From: Caldisericota bacterium
GTDB lineage: Bacteria; Caldisericota; Caldisericia; Cryosericales; Cryosericaceae
DNA length: 20,255 bases
Reading direction: 5' to 3'
NCBI GenBank assembly: GCA_026390245.1
Contig: JAPLGI010000012.1
Location: forward strand, 1 to 20,255
Under the pieces are notes generated by a model, which saw only the letters and a list, made by a program, of their open reading frames with translations, was not told where the DNA came from and did not search any database. Below, in pieces: positions 3,388 to 12,163 of the stretch. How positions within the stretch are numbered: position 1 is the first letter of the stretch; each line of letters begins with the position of its first letter. Position numbers and translations under genes: made by a program.

Positions 3388-4080
3388 ATGACACATGAGC
3401 AGCTTACTTTTCTTGGCCATTCGGCTTTCCTGATCGCCACGGAGGTTGGAGACATCCTTATCGACCCATTCCTCTCGGGCAACCCTAGCGCGTCTCTCGG
3501 TCCCGACGACGTCCATCCTGCCTACATCCTGGTGACGCATGGTCACTCCGACCACCTCGGAGATACCATCTCCATTGCCAAACGCACCGGAGCGACCGTC
3601 ATCGGTCCTGCGGAACTCATCACCTACCTTGCTGACAGAGGAGTGCCAAACGTGCATCCCATGCATATCGGTGGCAACCACACTTTTCCGTTTGGTGAAC
3701 TCTTCCTGACTCAGGCTCTGCACGGCTCGTCCGTCACAGAGAACGGCCACCTCATCTACACAGGAAATCCCTGTGGCTTCGTAATCAAGACGGGACAGCG
3801 GACGACCTACCACGCAGGCGACACCGGTGTCTTTCTCGACATGGAGCTTATAGGCCGCCTGCACCCGGTGGACATTGCGCTTCTCCCTATCGGCGGCAAT
3901 TTCACGATGGGCATCGACGATGCCGTAGAAGCTGTCAGGATGCTTGCACCACACACGGTGATCCCCATACACTATGGCACCTTCCCTGTCATCGCTGCCG
4001 ACGCGCAGGCATTCAAGCACAAGGTTGAGACCTCAACAAGCGCTCACTGCATAGTCCTGGAACCCGGACAGACCTTCTGA
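3388..4080 (+). CDS. UPF0173 metal-dependent hydrolase (metallo-beta-lactamase fold)
   Basis: This 230-residue protein has the compact metallo-beta-lactamase fold of the UPF0173/YtkL family. The metal-binding motif is HGHSDHLGD at 51-59 (H51, H53, D55, H56). Further ligands are likely in HGSS near 111, in GDTGVF (the bridging aspartate) and in the late PIHYGTFP. Length and motif order match the family. Natural substrates are not established; hydrolase activity is inferred from the fold. GGTGGAGGT (3367-3375) lies about 12 bases before the ATG, a slightly long spacing. The gene is read from its own promoter and stands divergent from thrB. No signal peptide is visible, so it should be cytosolic. 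Confidence 0.88.
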   Translation: MTHEQLTFLGHSAFLIATEVGDILIDPFLSGNPSASLGPDDVHPAYILVTHGHSDHLGDTISIAKRTGATVIGPAELITYLADRGVPNVHPMHIGGNHTFPFGELFLTQALHGSSVTENGHLIYTGNPCGFVIKTGQRTTYHAGDTGVFLDMELIGRLHPVDIALLPIGGNFTMGIDDAVEAVRMLAPHTVIPIHYGTFPVIAADAQAFKHKVETSTSAHCIVLEPGQTF

Positions 4081-4153: not shown

Positions 4154-5614
4154 ATGAGAGACCAGAATCGTACCCCTTTTTTTGATGCCGTTCAGTCATA
4201 CATTGGCAAGCACCGCGCCGGCCTCCACATGCCGGGGCACATGGCTGGCCAGGGCATCCATCCCCGCCTCAGGGAGTTCTGGGGAGAGAATGTCTTCCTT
4301 TCTGACCTGACGGAGGTTGAAGGGCTCGACTACCTCCATCGCCCCATCGGTGTGGTCAAGGAGGCACAGGAACTCGCTGCCGAAGCATATGGCGCCATCG
4401 AGTCATTCTTTCTGGTCAACGGTTCGACGGTCGGAAACCAGGCAATGATCCTGTCGACCTGCGACCCCTATGACCGTGTCATCGTACAGCGCAATTCTCA
4501 CCGTTCCATGTACGGGGCGCTCATTCTCAACGAATTGCGCCCTATCTACCTTGAGGCTGAAGAAGACCGTCTGCTGCAATTTCAGACATTCCCATCCAAG
4601 AAGACGTTCGCGCGCGTGCTCCGCGACCACCCTGAAGCCAAGACTGTCTTCGTAACCAATCCAAACTACTTCGGCATCAGTTCGGACATCGACTACTACG
4701 TTCAGAAAGCGCACGCCATGGGCCGCCGTATCCTGGTCGACGAGGCACACGGATCGCACTTCCACTTTCACCCCGGCCTCCCCAAAAGCGCTGTTGATGC
4801 GGGCGCTGACATGGTAGTACAGAGCACGCACAAAACGCTCTCCGGCCTTACTCAGACATCCATGCTGCACCTGGGCTCACGTCGCGTGGACAAGGAGTTG
4901 GTAAGAACCACGCTCACCATGCTGGAGAGCTCGTCGCCCTCGTACATCCTCATGACAGCTCTCGACGTCGCCCGTATGCAGATGGCGACAAACGGGTACG
5001 ACCTCCTTCAGCGGGCAATCGACCTCGCCGAGAATGCTCGCGGGCGCATCAACAAGATTGAGGGACTCTTTGCTCCCGGCAGAGAGCGCTCTCACACCGA
5101 GGCGGTCTATGACGTGGACCTCACGAAGCTGACCGTCCATGTGTCGAGGCTTGGACTGACGGGATTCCAGGTAGAAGACATTCTCAACAAGGATTACAAT
5201 GTCGAGATTGAGCTGTCTGATCTGGAGAACATCCTCGCATTCATCACGATTGGAACGCCCAAAGAGTCAGTAGAGATCCTCATCCAGGCTCTGGAGGACA
5301 TTTCTCGCAAACGCCATGGCAGGAGTTCGACCATGACTCCTCCACCACCCATCCCTGACATTCCCGAGATGGTTCTGTTCCCGTTCGAGGCCTACTATGC
5401 CAAGAGAGAGCGCGTCCGCATGGAGGATTCGGTCGGGCGCATCATAGCAGAGCTCGTGACCCCCTATCCTCCCGGTATCCCCATCACGGTCCCGGGAGAG
5501 GTCATGACGCGCGAGTGCGTGGACTACATGGTGTTCATGCGCGACCACGGCGCGGATCTGCAGGGAATCATCGACAAGACAGCCAGGTACCTCCAGGTCG
5601 TCAAGGAGCGCTGA
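4154..5614 (+). CDS. Orn/Lys/Arg decarboxylase family protein (fold-type I, PLP)
   Basis: This 486-residue protein resembles the short, Bacillus SpeA-like branch of the Orn/Lys/Arg decarboxylases. It probably removes CO2 from arginine, lysine or ornithine to make a polyamine precursor. The PLP-phosphate loop NGST is at 89-92 and the PLP-ring aspartate is in VDEAHGSH at 195-202. The Schiff-base lysine is K227 in QSTHKTLSGL. The early RAGLHMPGHM (21-30) and late TPYPPGIPITVPGE motifs are family signatures. It lacks the N-terminal wing domain of the large inducible E. coli enzymes. No Shine-Dalgarno sequence precedes the ATG; a promoter sits so close that the mRNA may be leaderless. Which amino acid it uses cannot be read from the sequence. 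Confidence 0.9.
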   Translation: MRDQNRTPFFDAVQSYIGKHRAGLHMPGHMAGQGIHPRLREFWGENVFLSDLTEVEGLDYLHRPIGVVKEAQELAAEAYGAIESFFLVNGSTVGNQAMILSTCDPYDRVIVQRNSHRSMYGALILNELRPIYLEAEEDRLLQFQTFPSKKTFARVLRDHPEAKTVFVTNPNYFGISSDIDYYVQKAHAMGRRILVDEAHGSHFHFHPGLPKSAVDAGADMVVQSTHKTLSGLTQTSMLHLGSRRVDKELVRTTLTMLESSSPSYILMTALDVARMQMATNGYDLLQRAIDLAENARGRINKIEGLFAPGRERSHTEAVYDVDLTKLTVHVSRLGLTGFQVEDILNKDYNVEIELSDLENILAFITIGTPKESVEILIQALEDISRKRHGRSSTMTPPPPIPDIPEMVLFPFEAYYAKRERVRMEDSVGRIIAELVTPYPPGIPITVPGEVMTRECVDYMVFMRDHGADLQGIIDKTARYLQVVKER

Positions 5615-5649
5615 CCGATCGACCGGCCACTCCAGTGTCGATCATGAAG

Positions 5650-5675
5650 ACGCCCTGATGCAAGCATCAGGGCGT
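5650..5675. terminator. Strong bidirectional hairpin between convergent genes
   Basis: ACGCCCTGATG (5650-5660) and CATCAGGGCGT (5665-5675) form a perfect 11-bp stem with a CAAG loop. It lies between the decarboxylase (plus) and the IMPDH-like gene (minus). Flanks are pyrimidine-rich on both strands (TTCGATGTCTTCC and CTTCATGATC), so it can serve both transcripts. Confidence 0.75.
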
Positions 5676-5701
5676 TCGATGTCTTCCAGAACAAATCAGG
5701 G

Positions 5702-6589
5702 TCAGACGGGGTACGGTGGACGAATCCGGATGAATTCGGCCTTCTCCCGCAACTCCGCAATCGAACGCGCTCCAACGTAGCTGAGACTCTCGCGCACCTG
5801 TGCCGCAACCTTCGCCATGACCTGGGAAGCAGTGTCCGGCATCAGGGTGTTGAGGACGACAGCTGATGCCCCTGCGGCAAGGGCCTTGACTACGCTTGCG
5901 GCAGACCGCACCCCCATGTTGCAGACGATCGGCCTTCCGTACAGGGACGCGACGTCTTCGACTTCCATCAGGGCGGACAGTTCGGGAACTCCGACGCCCG
6001 ACAGCTCCGTGGCCTCCGCGAAAGAACTGAACCCGCTGCCGACGACGACAATGTCCGCACCGGCATCAATGACATCCTTGGCTCCGGCGCGCGTCTGAAC
6101 GTTGCCAACCATGAGCGGCAGCCAGTCAAATTCTGCCTTCACCGCCTGGATCTGCCGAAGAATGGTGGTACGGTCGGCATGCGGGACATCCACGATGATG
6201 ATGTCTGTCCAGACCTCAGCAAGCGAGCCTATATATTCCAGGATGTCCTCCCGTTCGAGATCGACAAGGGCTCCAACCACCGGCCGACCCTTCGGATCAC
6301 ACGCCGCGCCGTCCTCCTTGCACATGAGTTCCTTGACCTTGCGTACCTCATGTGCCTGATCCTCAACGGCGCCAGACAGAGGGATGAAGCCAATGCCGCC
6401 CGCGCGCGCGACAGTTGAAGCCAGGCGATAGTCAGCCGCAGGCTGACGCGCCGAGGTGATAAAGGGCGAACGCAAAACGACGTTGATCGAAAGCCTCGAC
6501 TCGAGGCTGACGTCGGAGGCAGTCACCTCGCTTCGGCGGGGCAGGAGCATGACGTCGTCAAAGAACAGACCTTCTCGAAGTCCCGGCAT
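5702..6589 (-). CDS. IMP dehydrogenase-like protein lacking the catalytic cysteine
   Basis: The 295-residue TIM barrel clearly belongs to the IMPDH/GMP reductase family: LFFDDVMLLPRRSEV at 8-22, KGRPVVGALV near 100-109, LMVGNVQTRAGAKDVIDAGAD at 159-179, VKALAAGASAVVL at 234-246 and SYVGARSIAELREKA at 270-284. It has no CBS (Bateman) insert. The active-site loop, normally GPGSICTTR with the catalytic Cys, reads GSGFSSFAEA at 184-193. The phosphate-binding DGG is replaced by CNMG at 223-226. IMP oxidation by the usual covalent mechanism therefore looks impossible. The protein may bind a nucleotide, have changed chemistry, or be regulatory. It sits 9 bases after a DUF4388 gene and was probably co-transcribed. 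AGGA about 8 bases before the ATG supports the start. Confidence 0.85.
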   Translation of the reverse strand: MPGLREGLFFDDVMLLPRRSEVTASDVSLESRLSINVVLRSPFITSARQPAADYRLASTVARAGGIGFIPLSGAVEDQAHEVRKVKELMCKEDGAACDPKGRPVVGALVDLEREDILEYIGSLAEVWTDIIIVDVPHADRTTILRQIQAVKAEFDWLPLMVGNVQTRAGAKDVIDAGADIVVVGSGFSSFAEATELSGVGVPELSALMEVEDVASLYGRPIVCNMGVRSAASVVKALAAGASAVVLNTLMPDTASQVMAKVAAQVRESLSYVGARSIAELREKAEFIRIRPPYPV

Positions 6590-6598
6590 CTCCGTGTC

Positions 6599-7219
6599 CT
6601 ACTTCCGGCTCCAGAGGCCGAGAAAACTGCGGTGCTGTGGTGGTGTCGGTTCCGCATCCCGAGTGGAGGATGGAGCTTCCACTTCGACGGCGAGCCCTGC
6701 CTCCATGAATCCGTAGAGCGCTTTGGACACTGCAACACTTCCCTTGCCTGTCTTTCTTGCGATCTCACGCATCGACGTCTTGCCATCCAGGCTGACCATC
6801 ACCTGCCACTGCTCCCTGGTGAGCGTCAGGTCCCTGCCGGCGCCCTCTGCACTCAGAGCATAGACCACATCAAGTGAACCAAGCTTCTGGCGCATCGAAT
6901 TCCACTCGTCGAGAGCCGCTGTCACCTGAAGGACGATGTCCGCAATCGGAATGGACTGGTCCCTGGTCGTTGCCATCTCGCCACTCGCAAAAGAGAAACT
7001 CCCCTCTCTAAGGCTGAACAGGTCCACAAGCGAACTGTAAGCTGTCCCAGCACCTATGTCGACATGAACCATTCGCGAGTCCTCGATGTAGAATGTCGCC
7101 TTGACGCGCCCTCCGAAGATCGATGTGCCCTCAAGATTGAGGCAACCCGTCCCCTTGCCCTGCACAATCGTCTGGAGGACTTCGTCCACCTGGCAGTTGC
7201 CAAATTTCCCTTCAAGCAT
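6599..7219 (-). CDS. DUF4388 protein with C-terminal winged helix
   Basis: The N-terminal half (residues 1-104 from the start chosen) matches the DUF4388 pattern: MLEGKFGNCQVDEVLQTIVQGKGTG-type opening, then a beta-rich part with FYIEDSRMVHVDIG and a LFSLREGSFSF motif. Residues 132-180 (REQWQVMVSLDGKTSMREIA onward) look like a winged helix-turn-helix. DUF4388 domains occur in bacterial signalling proteins, so a signalling or regulatory role is inferred. The frame is open up to 7357. I chose ATG 7219 because the domain begins there, GGGGG lies about 6 bases upstream, and a promoter at 7257-7285 would start RNA near 7250, after the upstream ATGs. It is followed within 9 bases by the IMPDH-like gene. 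Confidence 0.7.
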   Translation of the reverse strand: MLEGKFGNCQVDEVLQTIVQGKGTGCLNLEGTSIFGGRVKATFYIEDSRMVHVDIGAGTAYSSLVDLFSLREGSFSFASGEMATTRDQSIPIADIVLQVTAALDEWNSMRQKLGSLDVVYALSAEGAGRDLTLTREQWQVMVSLDGKTSMREIARKTGKGSVAVSKALYGFMEAGLAVEVEAPSSTRDAEPTPPQHRSFLGLWSRK

Positions 7220-7256
7220 CCTTGACCCCCAGTTCCACAGCCTGCAGTACATGTTC

Positions 7257-7285
7257 ATTGTACTGTCGTGCGCAGCTTTTTGCAA
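7257..7285 (-). promoter_or_regulatory. Promoter of the DUF4388/IMPDH-like operon
   Basis: On the minus strand TTGCAA (7280-7285), a 17-base spacer and TACAAT (7257-7262) give a good sigma-70-type promoter. It faces away from a plus-strand promoter starting 9 bases further on. Confidence 0.5.
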
Positions 7286-7293
7286 CGTCCGCG

Positions 7294-7321
7294 TTGCATC
7301 CTCGTATGCCTCCAGTATACT
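7294..7321 (+). promoter_or_regulatory. Promoter of the small multidrug-export gene
   Basis: TTGCAT (7294-7299), a 16-base spacer and TATACT (7316-7321) precede the ATG at 7340. The predicted start point near 7328 leaves a leader of only about 12 bases. Confidence 0.5.
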
Positions 7322-7339
7322 GAGAGAGTGTCCAACCTC

Positions 7340-7801
7340 ATGCAGAACATTCTCCATATCTTTCTCATCACCATGATCCCGGGCGTCGAGGTTCGCGGCG
7401 CTCTGCCGTATGCCATCGGTGTACTTGGGATGCCCGTGTGGGAGGCGCTGCTCGCCGCAACGCTTGCCAATCTGTGCATCGCGCCGCTGTTCTATCTCCT
7501 GGAGAAGCCCGCTCTCGCTATCATGTCGAAGTGGAAATGGTTCCAGCGGTACCGGTCGCGCCTCGCCGTGCGCAGCAAGTCGACACTCGCACGGTATGGG
7601 CTTTTTGTCGGCCTCGCACTGTTCGTAGCCATCCCCCTCCCGGGAACTGGCGCCTATACCGGTTGTCTCATCGCCGAGATCATGCGCATGAAGAAGCCGC
7701 TGGCTATCGCCTGCATCTCACTGGGTGTTTTGGGGGCGTGCACTATTGTCTTTCTCGCGTCGGTCGGCATCATCAAGGGCGTCCTGGCAAAATGGCTGTG
7801 A
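7340..7801 (+). CDS. Small multidrug-export family membrane protein
   Basis: This 153-residue integral membrane protein has the PF06695/COG2426 signature: MIPGVEVRGALPYAIG near residues 12-27, two or three hydrophobic segments after it, a basic cytosolic loop (SKWKWFQRYRSRLAVRSKS), then VAIPLPGTGAYTGCLIAEI and a last hydrophobic helix. The two P-G-rich half motifs are reminiscent of re-entrant loops in DedA-like proteins. The family name is historical; the transported substrate is not firmly known. The frame is open back to 7268, but the promoter at 7294-7321 and the usual short N-terminus of the family favour ATG 7340. No clear Shine-Dalgarno is seen. A parS site lies between it and rsmG. 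Confidence 0.8.
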   Translation: MQNILHIFLITMIPGVEVRGALPYAIGVLGMPVWEALLAATLANLCIAPLFYLLEKPALAIMSKWKWFQRYRSRLAVRSKSTLARYGLFVGLALFVAIPLPGTGAYTGCLIAEIMRMKKPLAIACISLGVLGACTIVFLASVGIIKGVLAKWL

Positions 7802-9354: not shown

Positions 9355-10495
9355 GCGTCTTGGGCGGGGGCTCGACGCTCTCTTCGCCAGCGAACAGACA
9401 CAATCATTGTCGGCGGACGGCACCGAGGTCCGCATGCTTCGGCTTGACCAGATCATCCCTTCGCCGCTGCAGCCGCGCCGCCGGTTCGATGAGACAGCGC
9501 TTGCAACGCTGGGAGAGAGTATCCGCAAGCACGGCATACTCGAGCCCATCATCGTGCGCCCACGGGATGGTCGGTTCGAGATTGTCGCTGGAGAACGCCG
9601 ATTCCAGGCTGCTGTTCAAGTGGGCCTGGAACAGATTCCTGTGACAGTCCGCGAACTCGATGACCGGACGACCATGGAGATCGCGCTCTCGGAGAACCTG
9701 GAACGCGAGGACTTATCCCCAATCGAAGTCGCCACTTCCTTCAGCGATTACCTTGCCAAGTTCGGGACAACCCAGGAAGAACTCGCACAGCGCCTCGGCA
9801 AGGACAGGAGCACGGTTGCCAACCTCATCCGCCTTCTGGACCTTCCGGAAACTGCACGCGTCGCCCTAGACAACGGTGCCATCAGCTCCGGGCATGCCCG
9901 CGCACTTTTGTCGCTCAAAGACGAGAGACAACTTAGCTCGGCATTGGCGCAAGTGGTCAGTAAACAGCTGTCGGTCCGTCAGACCGAGGCGCTTGTGCGA
10001 CGACTGCTGATGAAGAAACTCCGCGCGGAGGTCGTGCATGATGAGGCACTGCGCAACATCCAGGAGACCATGCAGAAACTGCTGGCCACACGCGTCAGCA
10101 TACGCGGGCGGGTCAACAGGGGCGTCATTGAGATCAGCTACTTCAATCAGGAAGATCTGCTGAGGATCCTCGGGATTCTGAATTCGCAGGAGAAGGCCGG
10201 TGGCGAGGACGGCAGTCATCGATGGTCAGTCCGATGTATTCTGGTTCTTCTCCCCGTCGACGCAGTGCAACATGCCTCCGGTGAAACTGCTTCAGCCCTC
10301 GCTGTTCTGTCTCTCTGCAAACTCAAAGCCATCAGCCTTCAAATCTCGGATGAACTGGTCAATCACTCCTCGTGCCTTTTCCGAAGGCATGCTTGGGAAG
10401 TTGAACATGGTGCCGCCAGGGACCTCTGTATAGAACGGCCTGTTGCATCCGAGGCATCCATGCGTCACAAACACGAAGTGCCTCTTCAGAAATGA
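9341..10495 (+). CDS. parB: Chromosome-partitioning CTPase ParB (Spo0J) with an unusual C-terminal tail
   Basis: The N-terminal RLGRGLDALF contains the ParA-interacting segment. The ParB/Srx domain spans about 30-124, with GERR (84-87) of the CTP site and ENLERED (118-124). The helix-turn-helix (about 142-168, EELAQRLGKDRSTVANLI) reads parS. The usual dimerisation end, IEISYFNQEDLLRILGIL, is at 263-280. A normal ParB would stop near here, at about 285 residues, but this frame continues to residue 384. The tail shows no recognisable domain, is cysteine- and histidine-rich, and its last 204 bases overlap the radical SAM gene on the other strand. Stop-codon loss, a nearby indel or a sequencing error are all possible. 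It starts at GTG with GGAGG 9 bases upstream. Confidence 0.92.
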   Translation: MNNSKRLGRGLDALFASEQTQSLSADGTEVRMLRLDQIIPSPLQPRRRFDETALATLGESIRKHGILEPIIVRPRDGRFEIVAGERRFQAAVQVGLEQIPVTVRELDDRTTMEIALSENLEREDLSPIEVATSFSDYLAKFGTTQEELAQRLGKDRSTVANLIRLLDLPETARVALDNGAISSGHARALLSLKDERQLSSALAQVVSKQLSVRQTEALVRRLLMKKLRAEVVHDEALRNIQETMQKLLATRVSIRGRVNRGVIEISYFNQEDLLRILGILNSQEKAGGEDGSHRWSVRCILVLLPVDAVQHASGETASALAVLSLCKLKAISLQISDELVNHSSCLFRRHAWEVEHGAARDLCIERPVASEASMRHKHEVPLQK

Positions 10496-11284
10496 ACGCA
10501 TCCGGGCTTCGCTGAGACCAAAGCTGTAAATACGGTTCGTGGCATCATACGCAACATGGAAGCATTCCTCATCCTCCTGGTCCAGCAGCCCCAGCAGGAA
10601 CTGAAGCTTGCGATATGCAAGCAGCAGCGGCGGGCTCGCATGTTCCATCTGTGTCCCCTGGACGGGGGTGAACGCGAACAAGGACACAAGCACGCCAGCG
10701 TGACGCATCTCGAGCATCAGCTCGGCGGCTTCCATCTCGTCCTCTCCGAGCCCTATGATCAAGTGCGTCGTTATGCGGCCGGGGTACCTCTCCGACAGGC
10801 TCCCCACCAGCGACTCTGCATCCGCCAGGGTTCCACCTCGAATAGTGGGATACAGTCGTTCAGAGCAACAGTCGATGGCGATGCCAATGCGCTCCACGCC
10901 GGCATCAAGCAACTGCTCTGCCTCCTCATCCCTTGTCACTCTGTACGACACAGAGACAGGCAGTCCGCTTGCCTGGCTGATCCGCGGCACGAGAGACAGC
11001 AGCTGCCTGAACACTCCGCGTGAGGCTGTCGTCTGAAAACACACTCTCTGAAATGCTCCGGGGTGAGCAGCAAAGGCCGCGATCAGCTGATCTTCATCAA
11101 CCTCTGGCCAACTAATGCGCGAAAGCCGACTGTGGTCGCCGACAACGTTCCGGCCTTGACCGCAGTACGCACAGTCACTGGCGCACCGTCCGCCGATCAT
11201 GAGATACGCCGTTGTGGGCGCGGCATCCATGCGGATGTCGCGCAGGCCCAGGACAGTCAATGTACCGATACTTGCCCGAACCAT
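10292..11284 (-). CDS. Radical SAM protein, BioB-related (LipS1/LipS2-type)
   Basis: The [4Fe-4S] motif C-A-S-D-C-A-Y-C follows a strand that reads TTAYLMIGGR near residues 24-33. A TIM-barrel pattern follows (LDAGVERIGIAIDCCSERLY; THLIIGLGEDE). Near the C-terminus GCLGCNRPFYTEVPGG offers extra cysteines for a possible second cluster. It resembles the biotin-synthase-related family (COG2516-like from memory), one half of the LipS1/LipS2 pair that inserts sulfur into octanoyl groups to make lipoyl cofactor in archaea and some bacteria. The partner gene lies 36 bases upstream. GTG 11290 is also possible, but ATG 11284 has GGAG five bases before it and is preferred, giving 330 residues. The exact reaction is inferred, not shown. 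Confidence 0.7.
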   Translation of the reverse strand: MVRASIGTLTVLGLRDIRMDAAPTTAYLMIGGRCASDCAYCGQGRNVVGDHSRLSRISWPEVDEDQLIAAFAAHPGAFQRVCFQTTASRGVFRQLLSLVPRISQASGLPVSVSYRVTRDEEAEQLLDAGVERIGIAIDCCSERLYPTIRGGTLADAESLVGSLSERYPGRITTHLIIGLGEDEMEAAELMLEMRHAGVLVSLFAFTPVQGTQMEHASPPLLLAYRKLQFLLGLLDQEDEECFHVAYDATNRIYSFGLSEARMRSFLKRHFVFVTHGCLGCNRPFYTEVPGGTMFNFPSMPSEKARGVIDQFIRDLKADGFEFAERQNSEG

Positions 11285-11320
11285 GCTCACTCCATCTCAG
11301 AGCAAAGACCGACAGCGGGC

Positions 11321-12163
11321 TTACCGGTAGAAGACACAGCACTCCTCCACCTGTTCCACGTCCTGCATCCTGAACTTTTCGCCGACAACACCCCGGAATT
11401 GGTACTTCCCCGCCAGATGGGCCAGCTGTTCACCATAGCCGCCCACTCTGGGGTGCATGCAGCCCAGCACGAGGTCGGTGGACGGCAGCTTCAGCCTTGC
11501 ATAGGCAAACACCGACTCCACGGCATCGATGGGGACGAGAGGGAGTTCCGCGTAAGCCGTTCCCTCTGTGGGAATGAGAACCAGAAAGATCAGTGACGCC
11601 GGCTGAAACGCCACGAGCGAATCGATCGCCGCATACTCTCCGACGACGACACCGCCCTTGAGGCCAACCGTAAGGTGGAGGTTGACCCGCTGCTTCGCGG
11701 ACGCCAGCTCCTCCGGAGGGTTCGCAGCCCAAAACGCATCCGTCCAGCCACGAACTGCATGAAGGTAGTCGGCACCGGACTGTTGCAGATGATAGACCTC
11801 GCGGATGGTTGCAGCGTCCCACGTGTAGTCGAGAGACACTTTGTCGAACAGGGGGGATAACACCCGAATGTCCTCGTCCGACTGCAGGCCGACGTGAGCG
11901 TTGATACGTATTCCCTGTTCATGAACCCAGGTGATGAAGGCCAGGTGCTCCGTCAGGGGCAGGCGCCCACGGACATCGCTTCCGCCAGACAGCAGTATGC
12001 TTCGGTACTTTCCAGATTCAAGCGCCTGGCGGGCCGCGGCCACCGGAACCATATGCTGCAGGTAATGTCCACCGCAGTGGCTACAATGCAGTGCACACTC
12101 CCGTCCCGTGACAGACACGACAAGGGTTCGGCTGGGAACGCAGTTGAAGACTATCCCGCTCAG
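11321..12163 (-). CDS. Radical SAM protein, biotin-synthase homologue (LipS1/LipS2-type), probable CTG start
   Basis: The cluster motif is C-A-L-H-C-S-H-C in VTGRECALHCSHCGGHYL. Later barrel parts include SILLSGGSDVRG, RINAHVGLQSDED, VSLDYTWDAATIREVY and LVLGCMHPRVG. It resembles the uncharacterised biotin-synthetase homologues (COG1856-like from memory) that partner the neighbouring type in LipS lipoyl synthesis. The first standard start is GTG at 12118, but that leaves only seven residues before the first cysteine, cuts the first barrel strand (RTLVVSVTG) and has no ribosome binding site. The frame is open back to 12187 with no ATG, GTG or TTG. A CTG at 12163 overlaps the upstream stop as CTGA, with GGAAG just before it, and would give 280 residues. 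Confidence 0.68.
   Translation of the reverse strand: MSGIVFNCVPSRTLVVSVTGRECALHCSHCGGHYLQHMVPVAAARQALESGKYRSILLSGGSDVRGRLPLTEHLAFITWVHEQGIRINAHVGLQSDEDIRVLSPLFDKVSLDYTWDAATIREVYHLQQSGADYLHAVRGWTDAFWAANPPEELASAKQRVNLHLTVGLKGGVVVGEYAAIDSLVAFQPASLIFLVLIPTEGTAYAELPLVPIDAVESVFAYARLKLPSTDLVLGCMHPRVGGYGEQLAHLAGKYQFRGVVGEKFRMQDVEQVEECCVFYR

What the first reader, a model, noticed from the sequence alone, without database searches (positions are those of the whole stretch)
5702..6589. IMP dehydrogenase paralogue without catalytic cysteine or phosphate-binding Asp
The barrel skeleton of IMPDH is well kept (FFDDVMLLP, VGNV, DAGAD, KALAAG, SYVGA), but the active-site loop GPGSICTTR reads GSGFSSFAEA and the DGG motif reads CNMG. 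The frame is intact and coherent, so this is selection for something other than IMP oxidation rather than decay. Pairing with a DUF4388 signalling-type gene 9 bases upstream hints at a nucleotide-sensing role.
Basis: partly seen in the sequence, partly recalled or inferred. Interest (0 to 1): 0.72.

Follow-up and report, generated by a model that had tools for sequence, protein, structure and literature searches.

The report
Inactive IMPDH relative with signalling partner
Some little-known bacteria of cold soils and sediments carry, beside a normal IMP dehydrogenase gene, a stripped-down copy that lacks the parts needed for catalysis yet is kept by selection next to a signalling-protein gene, which suggests that it has become a regulator.

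Summary
Confirmed. 5702-6589(-) encodes a 295-aa IMPDH barrel in a Ca. Cryosericum genome. The catalytic Cys is absent in 35 of 35 full-length family members counted, and the DGG Asp is Asn in all 35 (CNMG aligns with ADGG). The flap and CBS module are deleted too. A canonical guaB lies beside guaA elsewhere in the genome. The family is under purifying selection (median dN/dS 0.08) and forms one clade. Its gene follows a DUF4388 (PATAN)-winged-helix gene by 8-9 nt. The same 11 of 15 genus genomes hold both genes; one genome lost both by deletion, one shows decay of both, one has only the barrel gene broken. In loops, conservation is inverted relative to GuaB of the same genus: the catalytic face varies, the opposite face is conserved. 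In related families the nearest DUF4388 relative usually neighbours a small GTPase that was not found in Cryosericum. Best reading: a pseudoenzyme acting as binding partner or input of the PATAN-winged-helix protein. Nucleotide sensing is possible, not shown. No description was seen in the paper searches made. New variant of a known kind (regulatory pseudoenzyme).

The parts
5702..6589 (-). IMPDHp: 295-aa IMPDH-type barrel without catalytic Cys, DGG Asp, flap or CBS module
   Evidence: ORF, Pfam PF00478, alignment, model and fold match
5987..6040 (-). Residues 184-201, equivalent of the catalytic loop: GSGFSSFAEATELSGVGV
   Evidence: Aligned; Cys 0 of 35, Glu-Ala-Thr 35 of 35
5912..5923 (-). 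Residues 223-226 CNMG, equivalent of ADGG
   Evidence: C223 and N224 in 35 of 35; G226 in 30 of 35, Asp in 5
5819..5836 (-). Junction (residues 252-257) where the 57-60-residue flap segment of IMPDH is absent
   Evidence: Alignment
6299..6334 (-). Place (residues 86-97) where the CBS module of IMPDH is absent
   Evidence: Alignment
6599..7216 (-). DUF4388 (PATAN-type)-winged-helix protein, 205 aa, likely start at 7216; spacer to IMPDHp 9 nt
   Evidence: Pfam PF14332 45.6 bits against cut-off 25; homology from residue 1; model; winged-helix match
7257..7285 (-). Promoter-like TTGCAA-17-TACAAT upstream of the pair
   Evidence: Pattern scan: 2 found in 5550-7450 against 0.4 expected; TTGYAA-17-TACAAT readable in 7 of 7 sequences printed. 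Consensus match only
5650..5675 (.). Hairpin between the convergent 3' ends of IMPDHp and the Orn/Lys/Arg decarboxylase gene
   Evidence: Fold z -3.7; the terminator scan found no site there, so a terminator role is not shown

Best explanation
IMPDHp is a pseudoenzyme: an IMPDH-family copy cut down to its barrel, without the catalytic Cys, the DGG Asp, the flap and the CBS module. It works with the PATAN-winged-helix protein encoded just upstream. Shown: the losses, the purifying selection, and the joint presence and joint loss with that gene. Inferred: the two proteins bind each other, with the non-catalytic end of the barrel, where CBS would be inserted, as the contact; the barrel sets the activity or place of the PATAN protein, perhaps gated by a small ligand at the still conserved loops 4 and 6. 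A parallel in print is the sensor PixD, which binds the PATAN protein PixE (PMC7690835, passages read).
For: Catalytic Cys 0 of 35 and Asn for Asp 35 of 35; flap and CBS deleted; median dN/dS 0.080 over 28 pairs; canonical guaB elsewhere; DUF4388 directly upstream in 9 of 9 near loci, spacer 8-9 nt; both genes in the same 11 of 15 genus genomes; pair absent from two genomes that keep the locus, one by deletion; both broken in G008; loop conservation inverted relative to GuaB.
Against: No contact between the two proteins was tested. In G007 DUF4388 stays intact while IMPDHp is broken, so DUF4388 may have a use without it. Catalytic-face loops 4 and 6 remain fairly conserved, and helices 4 and 8 are much less conserved than in GuaB, so the split by face is not clean. 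The AlphaFold model is uncertain in the replaced loop, and the five models ranged from 79.6 to 35.8 in mean pLDDT.
Confidence: 0.55

Rival explanations
1. IMPDHp is an enzyme with a new reaction: the barrel keeps part of the phosphate site (S189, mostly G226) and uses the new loop E192-A193-T194 for chemistry that needs neither Cys nor flap.
For: S189, E192, A193, T194 and N224 are invariant in 35 of 35; loops 4 and 6 of the catalytic face are fairly conserved.
Against: Catalytic-face loops as a whole vary more than the opposite loops (0.78 against 0.34 bits); loops 2 and 8 are the most variable loops; the flap is gone; the neighbour is a signalling-type gene, not an enzyme.
Confidence: 0.15
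2. IMPDHp is a regulatory subunit of the genuine GuaB: it joins GuaB oligomers and tunes guanine nucleotide synthesis; DUF4388 modulates that.
For: Same fold, canonical GuaB in the same genome, and 13 of 14 GuaB loci in the genus gave a readable canonical GuaB.
Against: guaB and IMPDHp lie on different contigs; GuaB persists in genomes without intact IMPDHp (G003, G005, G006, G008, G014); helices 4 and 8 have lost constraint.
Confidence: 0.15
3. IMPDHp is a gene on its way out, kept only for a while.
For: Broken in G007 (three stops and indels) and G008 (indels), deleted in G006; P0039, P0041 and P0045 show the same shifted N-terminal reading as G007; pairs with a broken copy reach dN/dS 0.12-0.24 (five pairs among L007, L009, L011 and L012).
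Against: Intact in 9 of the 11 genus genomes that hold it, with dN/dS 0.04-0.12 in 28 of 28 intact pairs; common signature over 18 members down to 62% identity.
Confidence: 0.05

Closest known systems
IMP dehydrogenase, GuaB (TIGR01302, PF00478)
   Different: No catalytic Cys, Asp of DGG, flap or CBS module; 167 bits against the equivalog cut-off 481.5
GMP reductase and GuaB1-type GMP reductase (TIGR01305, NF052358)
   Same: Same superfamily and barrel
   Different: 63 and 117 bits against cut-offs 492 and 675; by recall these keep the catalytic Cys, which is absent here
GuaB3 IMPDH-related proteins (TIGR01304)
   Same: Same superfamily; also an IMPDH-type protein without CBS, by recall
   Different: 33 bits against cut-off 342; GuaB3 of Synechococcus is described as an essential IMPDH (PMC13273366, passages read)
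CBS-less but catalytic IMPDHs of Brachyspira and related Caldisericota
   Same: Barrel without CBS module
   Different: Keep GSICTTR and DGG: L013-L019 and L055-L059, read
PATAN/DUF4388 genes paired with MglA-type small GTPases
   Same: A PATAN/DUF4388 gene beside a partner gene: in print for some MglA (PMC4316618, section 18 read) and here in related families
   Different: In Cryosericum the partner beside this DUF4388 is an IMPDH barrel; that GTPase was found in 0 of 15 genus genomes, though a separate MglA module exists

Membership tests
IMP dehydrogenase (catalytic) | IMPDH barrel fold and Pfam PF00478 | tested here: met
   [not shown]
IMP dehydrogenase (catalytic) | Catalytic Cys in GxGxxC loop | tested here: not met
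   Cys 0 of 35 members counted, out of 51 clusters found
IMP dehydrogenase (catalytic) | Asp of the DGG motif | tested here: not met
   Asn in 35 of 35
IMP dehydrogenase (catalytic) | Mobile flap between strand 8 and helix 8 | tested here: not met
   57-60 residues absent
IMP dehydrogenase (catalytic) | NCBIfam equivalog cut-off TIGR01302 | tested here: not met
   166.9 against 481.5 bits
IMP dehydrogenase (catalytic) | Oxidation of IMP with NAD | not testable with these tools
   Needs purified protein
GMP reductase / GuaB1 | Family cut-offs and catalytic Cys | tested here: not met
   117.4 against 675 and 63.4 against 492 bits; no Cys
GuaB3 | Family cut-off TIGR01304 | tested here: not met
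   33.3 against 342.1 bits
Regulatory pseudoenzyme | Loss of catalytic residues with purifying selection | tested here: met
Regulatory pseudoenzyme | Binding to, and effect on, a partner | not testable with these tools
   Only genetic linkage and shared loss seen
DUF4388/PATAN (the neighbour) | PF14332 over cut-off | tested here: met
   45.6 against 25 bits; that PF14332 is the PATAN domain is recalled
Decaying pseudogene | Broken frame or relaxed selection in the window's lineage | tested here: not met
   Intact ORF; dN/dS of window pairs 0.07-0.10. Met in G007 and G008

The most novel reading that the evidence does not exclude
A dead IMPDH barrel has taken the place of a small GTPase as the input of a PATAN-winged-helix switch, so that the cell reads a purine nucleotide by binding to a retired purine enzyme instead of by GTP hydrolysis.
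Probability: 0.12. Interest if true: 0.78.

Novelty: new variant of a known kind. Interest (0 to 1): 0.52.

Why it matters
Regulatory pseudoenzymes are known for many folds (general knowledge), but the paper searches made here (listings only) showed none derived from IMPDH. If the barrel controls a PATAN protein, it shows how a housekeeping purine enzyme can be turned into a signalling part, and it gives a new kind of candidate partner for the little-studied DUF4388/PATAN family (one paper held the word DUF4388; ten held 'PATAN domain'). The natural states found - both genes present, pair deleted, both broken, only the barrel broken - make the dependence between the two genes testable.

Tried and rejected
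Shifted catalytic cysteine: C223 is invariant (35 of 35), but it lies one residue before N224 at the end of strand 7, not in the catalytic loop; from the in/out alternation of strand residues I judge that it points away from the pocket (inference; no coordinates were inspected). C97, invariant in the 18 aligned members, lies at the place of the missing CBS module.

Recent duplicate of the genus's own GuaB: both trees make IMPDHp one clade, on a very long stem (1.55 changes per column). Holding it together with Cryosericum GuaB is not rejected (AU p 0.18), so its origin is unresolved.

Orthology of the window's DUF4388 to the GTPase-linked DUF4388 of related families: in family f3 it is the best match (76-91 bits; next 65 and lower), but the tree leaves the join open and warns of long branches. 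Likely, not shown. In one f3 genome (G045) the best-matching copy lies behind phosphofructokinase without the GTPase, and a second copy has it.

Distant members outside the genus: the profile search listed the same 51 clusters, from 296 bits up, and then canonical IMPDHs from 209 bits down. Only the best 120 of 1812 hits among 8000 scored candidates were listed, so weaker members could be hidden, and the hosts of most clusters are not named. A search of 54 genomes of the phylum gave 9 genomes outside the genus with a match; all 9 (L055-L060, L062-L064, read) keep the catalytic Cys.

Full report
Where it is. The window is one contig of a 1.28-Mb assembly, 84% complete. The nine closest loci in named genome records are 79-95% identical in this protein; their titles name Candidatus Cryosericum (three species), Caldiserica MAGs and one unnamed bacterium MAG.

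A family, not a freak. Two searches listed the same 51 clusters and then a gap to canonical IMPDHs. I counted residues in 35 of these 51, leaving out 16 that are short or frame-shifted: Cys at the catalytic position 0 of 35 (Ala 29, Thr 3, Val 2, Glu 1); Glu-Ala-Thr after it 35 of 35; Asn for the DGG Asp 35 of 35; the Ser of the phosphate loop 35 of 35; the second Gly of DGG 30 of 35. Of the 25 NCBIfam families shown for it, none is reached at its cut-off. The genome has a canonical guaB next to guaA on another contig.

Selection. Over 8 intact sequences (28 pairs) median dN/dS is 0.080, range 0.04-0.12. For DUF4388 the median is 0.139 (28 pairs), for the flanking decarboxylase gene 0.036 (6 sequences, 15 pairs). 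IMPDHp is one clade on a long stem; descent from the genus's own GuaB is not rejected (AU p 0.18).

The pair. DUF4388 lies directly upstream in 9 of 9 near loci, with a spacer of 8-9 nt in the window and in the 8 loci measured. A promoter-like TTGYAA-17-TACAAT upstream of DUF4388 is readable in 7 of 7 sequences printed. Of 15 genus genomes, the same 11 hold IMPDHp and this DUF4388; IMPDHp is intact in 9 of the 11. G003 and G005 lack both, but their assemblies also lack the flanking decarboxylase gene. G006 and G014 have the locus without either gene. In G006 the empty site keeps the sequence on both sides of the pair plus a 15-26-bp match to the inside of DUF4388 (found with three of five relatives tried), so this is loss by deletion; for G014 loss and never-gained cannot be told apart. 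In Ca. C. septentrionale (G008) both genes carry indels, and the start of IMPDHp is gone, while the flanking genes read through. In G007 only IMPDHp is broken, by indels and three stops. Five pairs of a broken copy with near relatives or with each other have dN/dS 0.12-0.24, against 0.04-0.12 for intact pairs.

Which face is conserved. I split the barrel by the model's secondary structure and compared 13 IMPDHp with 13 Cryosericum GuaB (14 GuaB loci tried; one slice gave none). In GuaB the catalytic-face loops are more conserved (mean entropy 0.18 bits, 40 of 57 invariant) than the opposite loops (0.39, 14 of 24); permutations reached this 171 times in 5000. In IMPDHp it is the reverse: 0.78 (18 of 58) against 0.34 (14 of 24), reached 13 times in 5000. 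Helix 2, the C-terminal helix and the CBS-linker stretch are more conserved in IMPDHp than in GuaB, although IMPDHp is the more diverged set (mean identity 0.73 against 0.87 in the barrel). Against a simple reading: catalytic-face loops 4 and 6 stay fairly conserved (0.40, 0.52), the stretch 23-42 and helices 4 and 8 vary more than the catalytic-face loops, neighbouring residues are not independent, and the two sets differ in depth. This is a pointer, not proof.

The partner. The neighbour is a DUF4388 (PATAN-type, name recalled) domain followed by a predicted winged helix. In related families of the class its nearest relatives tend to sit next to a small GTPase. From the coordinates this holds for the best-matching DUF4388 in 9 of 10 family-f3 genomes that have the GTPase (in the tenth, G045, for a second copy), and for 5 of 5 f4 genomes, where the DUF4388 similarity is weak. 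In the three f3 loci read in full a phosphofructokinase gene lies upstream. That GTPase was found in 0 of 15 Cryosericum genomes at E 1e-5, although the genus has a separate MglA: 15 of 15 genomes match Arf (not every match is MglA), and in G007 a DUF4388-Roadblock-MglA order is readable. Another DUF4388 gene of the window's genome lies about 0.9 kb from a secretion/pilus-type ATPase gene. PATAN genes near MglA GTPases are in print (PMC4316618, section 18 read), as is PATAN binding to the pilus motor PilB (PMC10519157, passage read) and to the sensor PixD (PMC7690835, passages read).

How it most likely works. The residues of the IMPDH mechanism are absent, so IMPDH activity is very unlikely. 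Selection, gene order and shared fate tie the barrel to the PATAN protein. The inverted loop conservation suggests a binding surface at the end of the barrel where IMPDH carries its CBS regulator. I therefore propose that the barrel holds or localises the PATAN-winged-helix protein, perhaps under control of a ligand at loops 4 and 6. The contact, the ligand and the output are inferred.

Novelty. The paper searches (listings only) showed no IMPDH-derived pseudoenzyme and none paired with PATAN/DUF4388; subscription papers are mostly not held. The kind, a regulatory pseudoenzyme, is known; this variant appears new.

Noticed in passing
L119 (G006), about 3767-3960: Empty site of the two-gene unit, with both flanks and a short match to the inside of DUF4388 left behind: a natural deletion.
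   Followed up: yes
L151 577-2190 (G007:C171): Another DUF4388 gene followed by Roadblock/LC7 and MglA-type GTPase genes: a second DUF4388 module in the genus.
   Followed up: partly
L093 1243-1830 (-) (G000:C166): A further DUF4388 gene about 0.9 kb from a T2SSE-family ATPase gene (PilT-like by recall), in line with PATAN-pilus links in print.
   Followed up: no
window 10292-12118 (-): Two adjacent genes: a radical SAM protein, and a 265-aa protein with a C-x3-C-x2-C stretch that matched no Pfam family at E 0.001.
   Followed up: no
[not shown]
   Followed up: no
L013-L019, L055-L059: CBS-less IMPDHs in Brachyspira and in other Caldisericota families that keep the catalytic Cys.
   Followed up: partly
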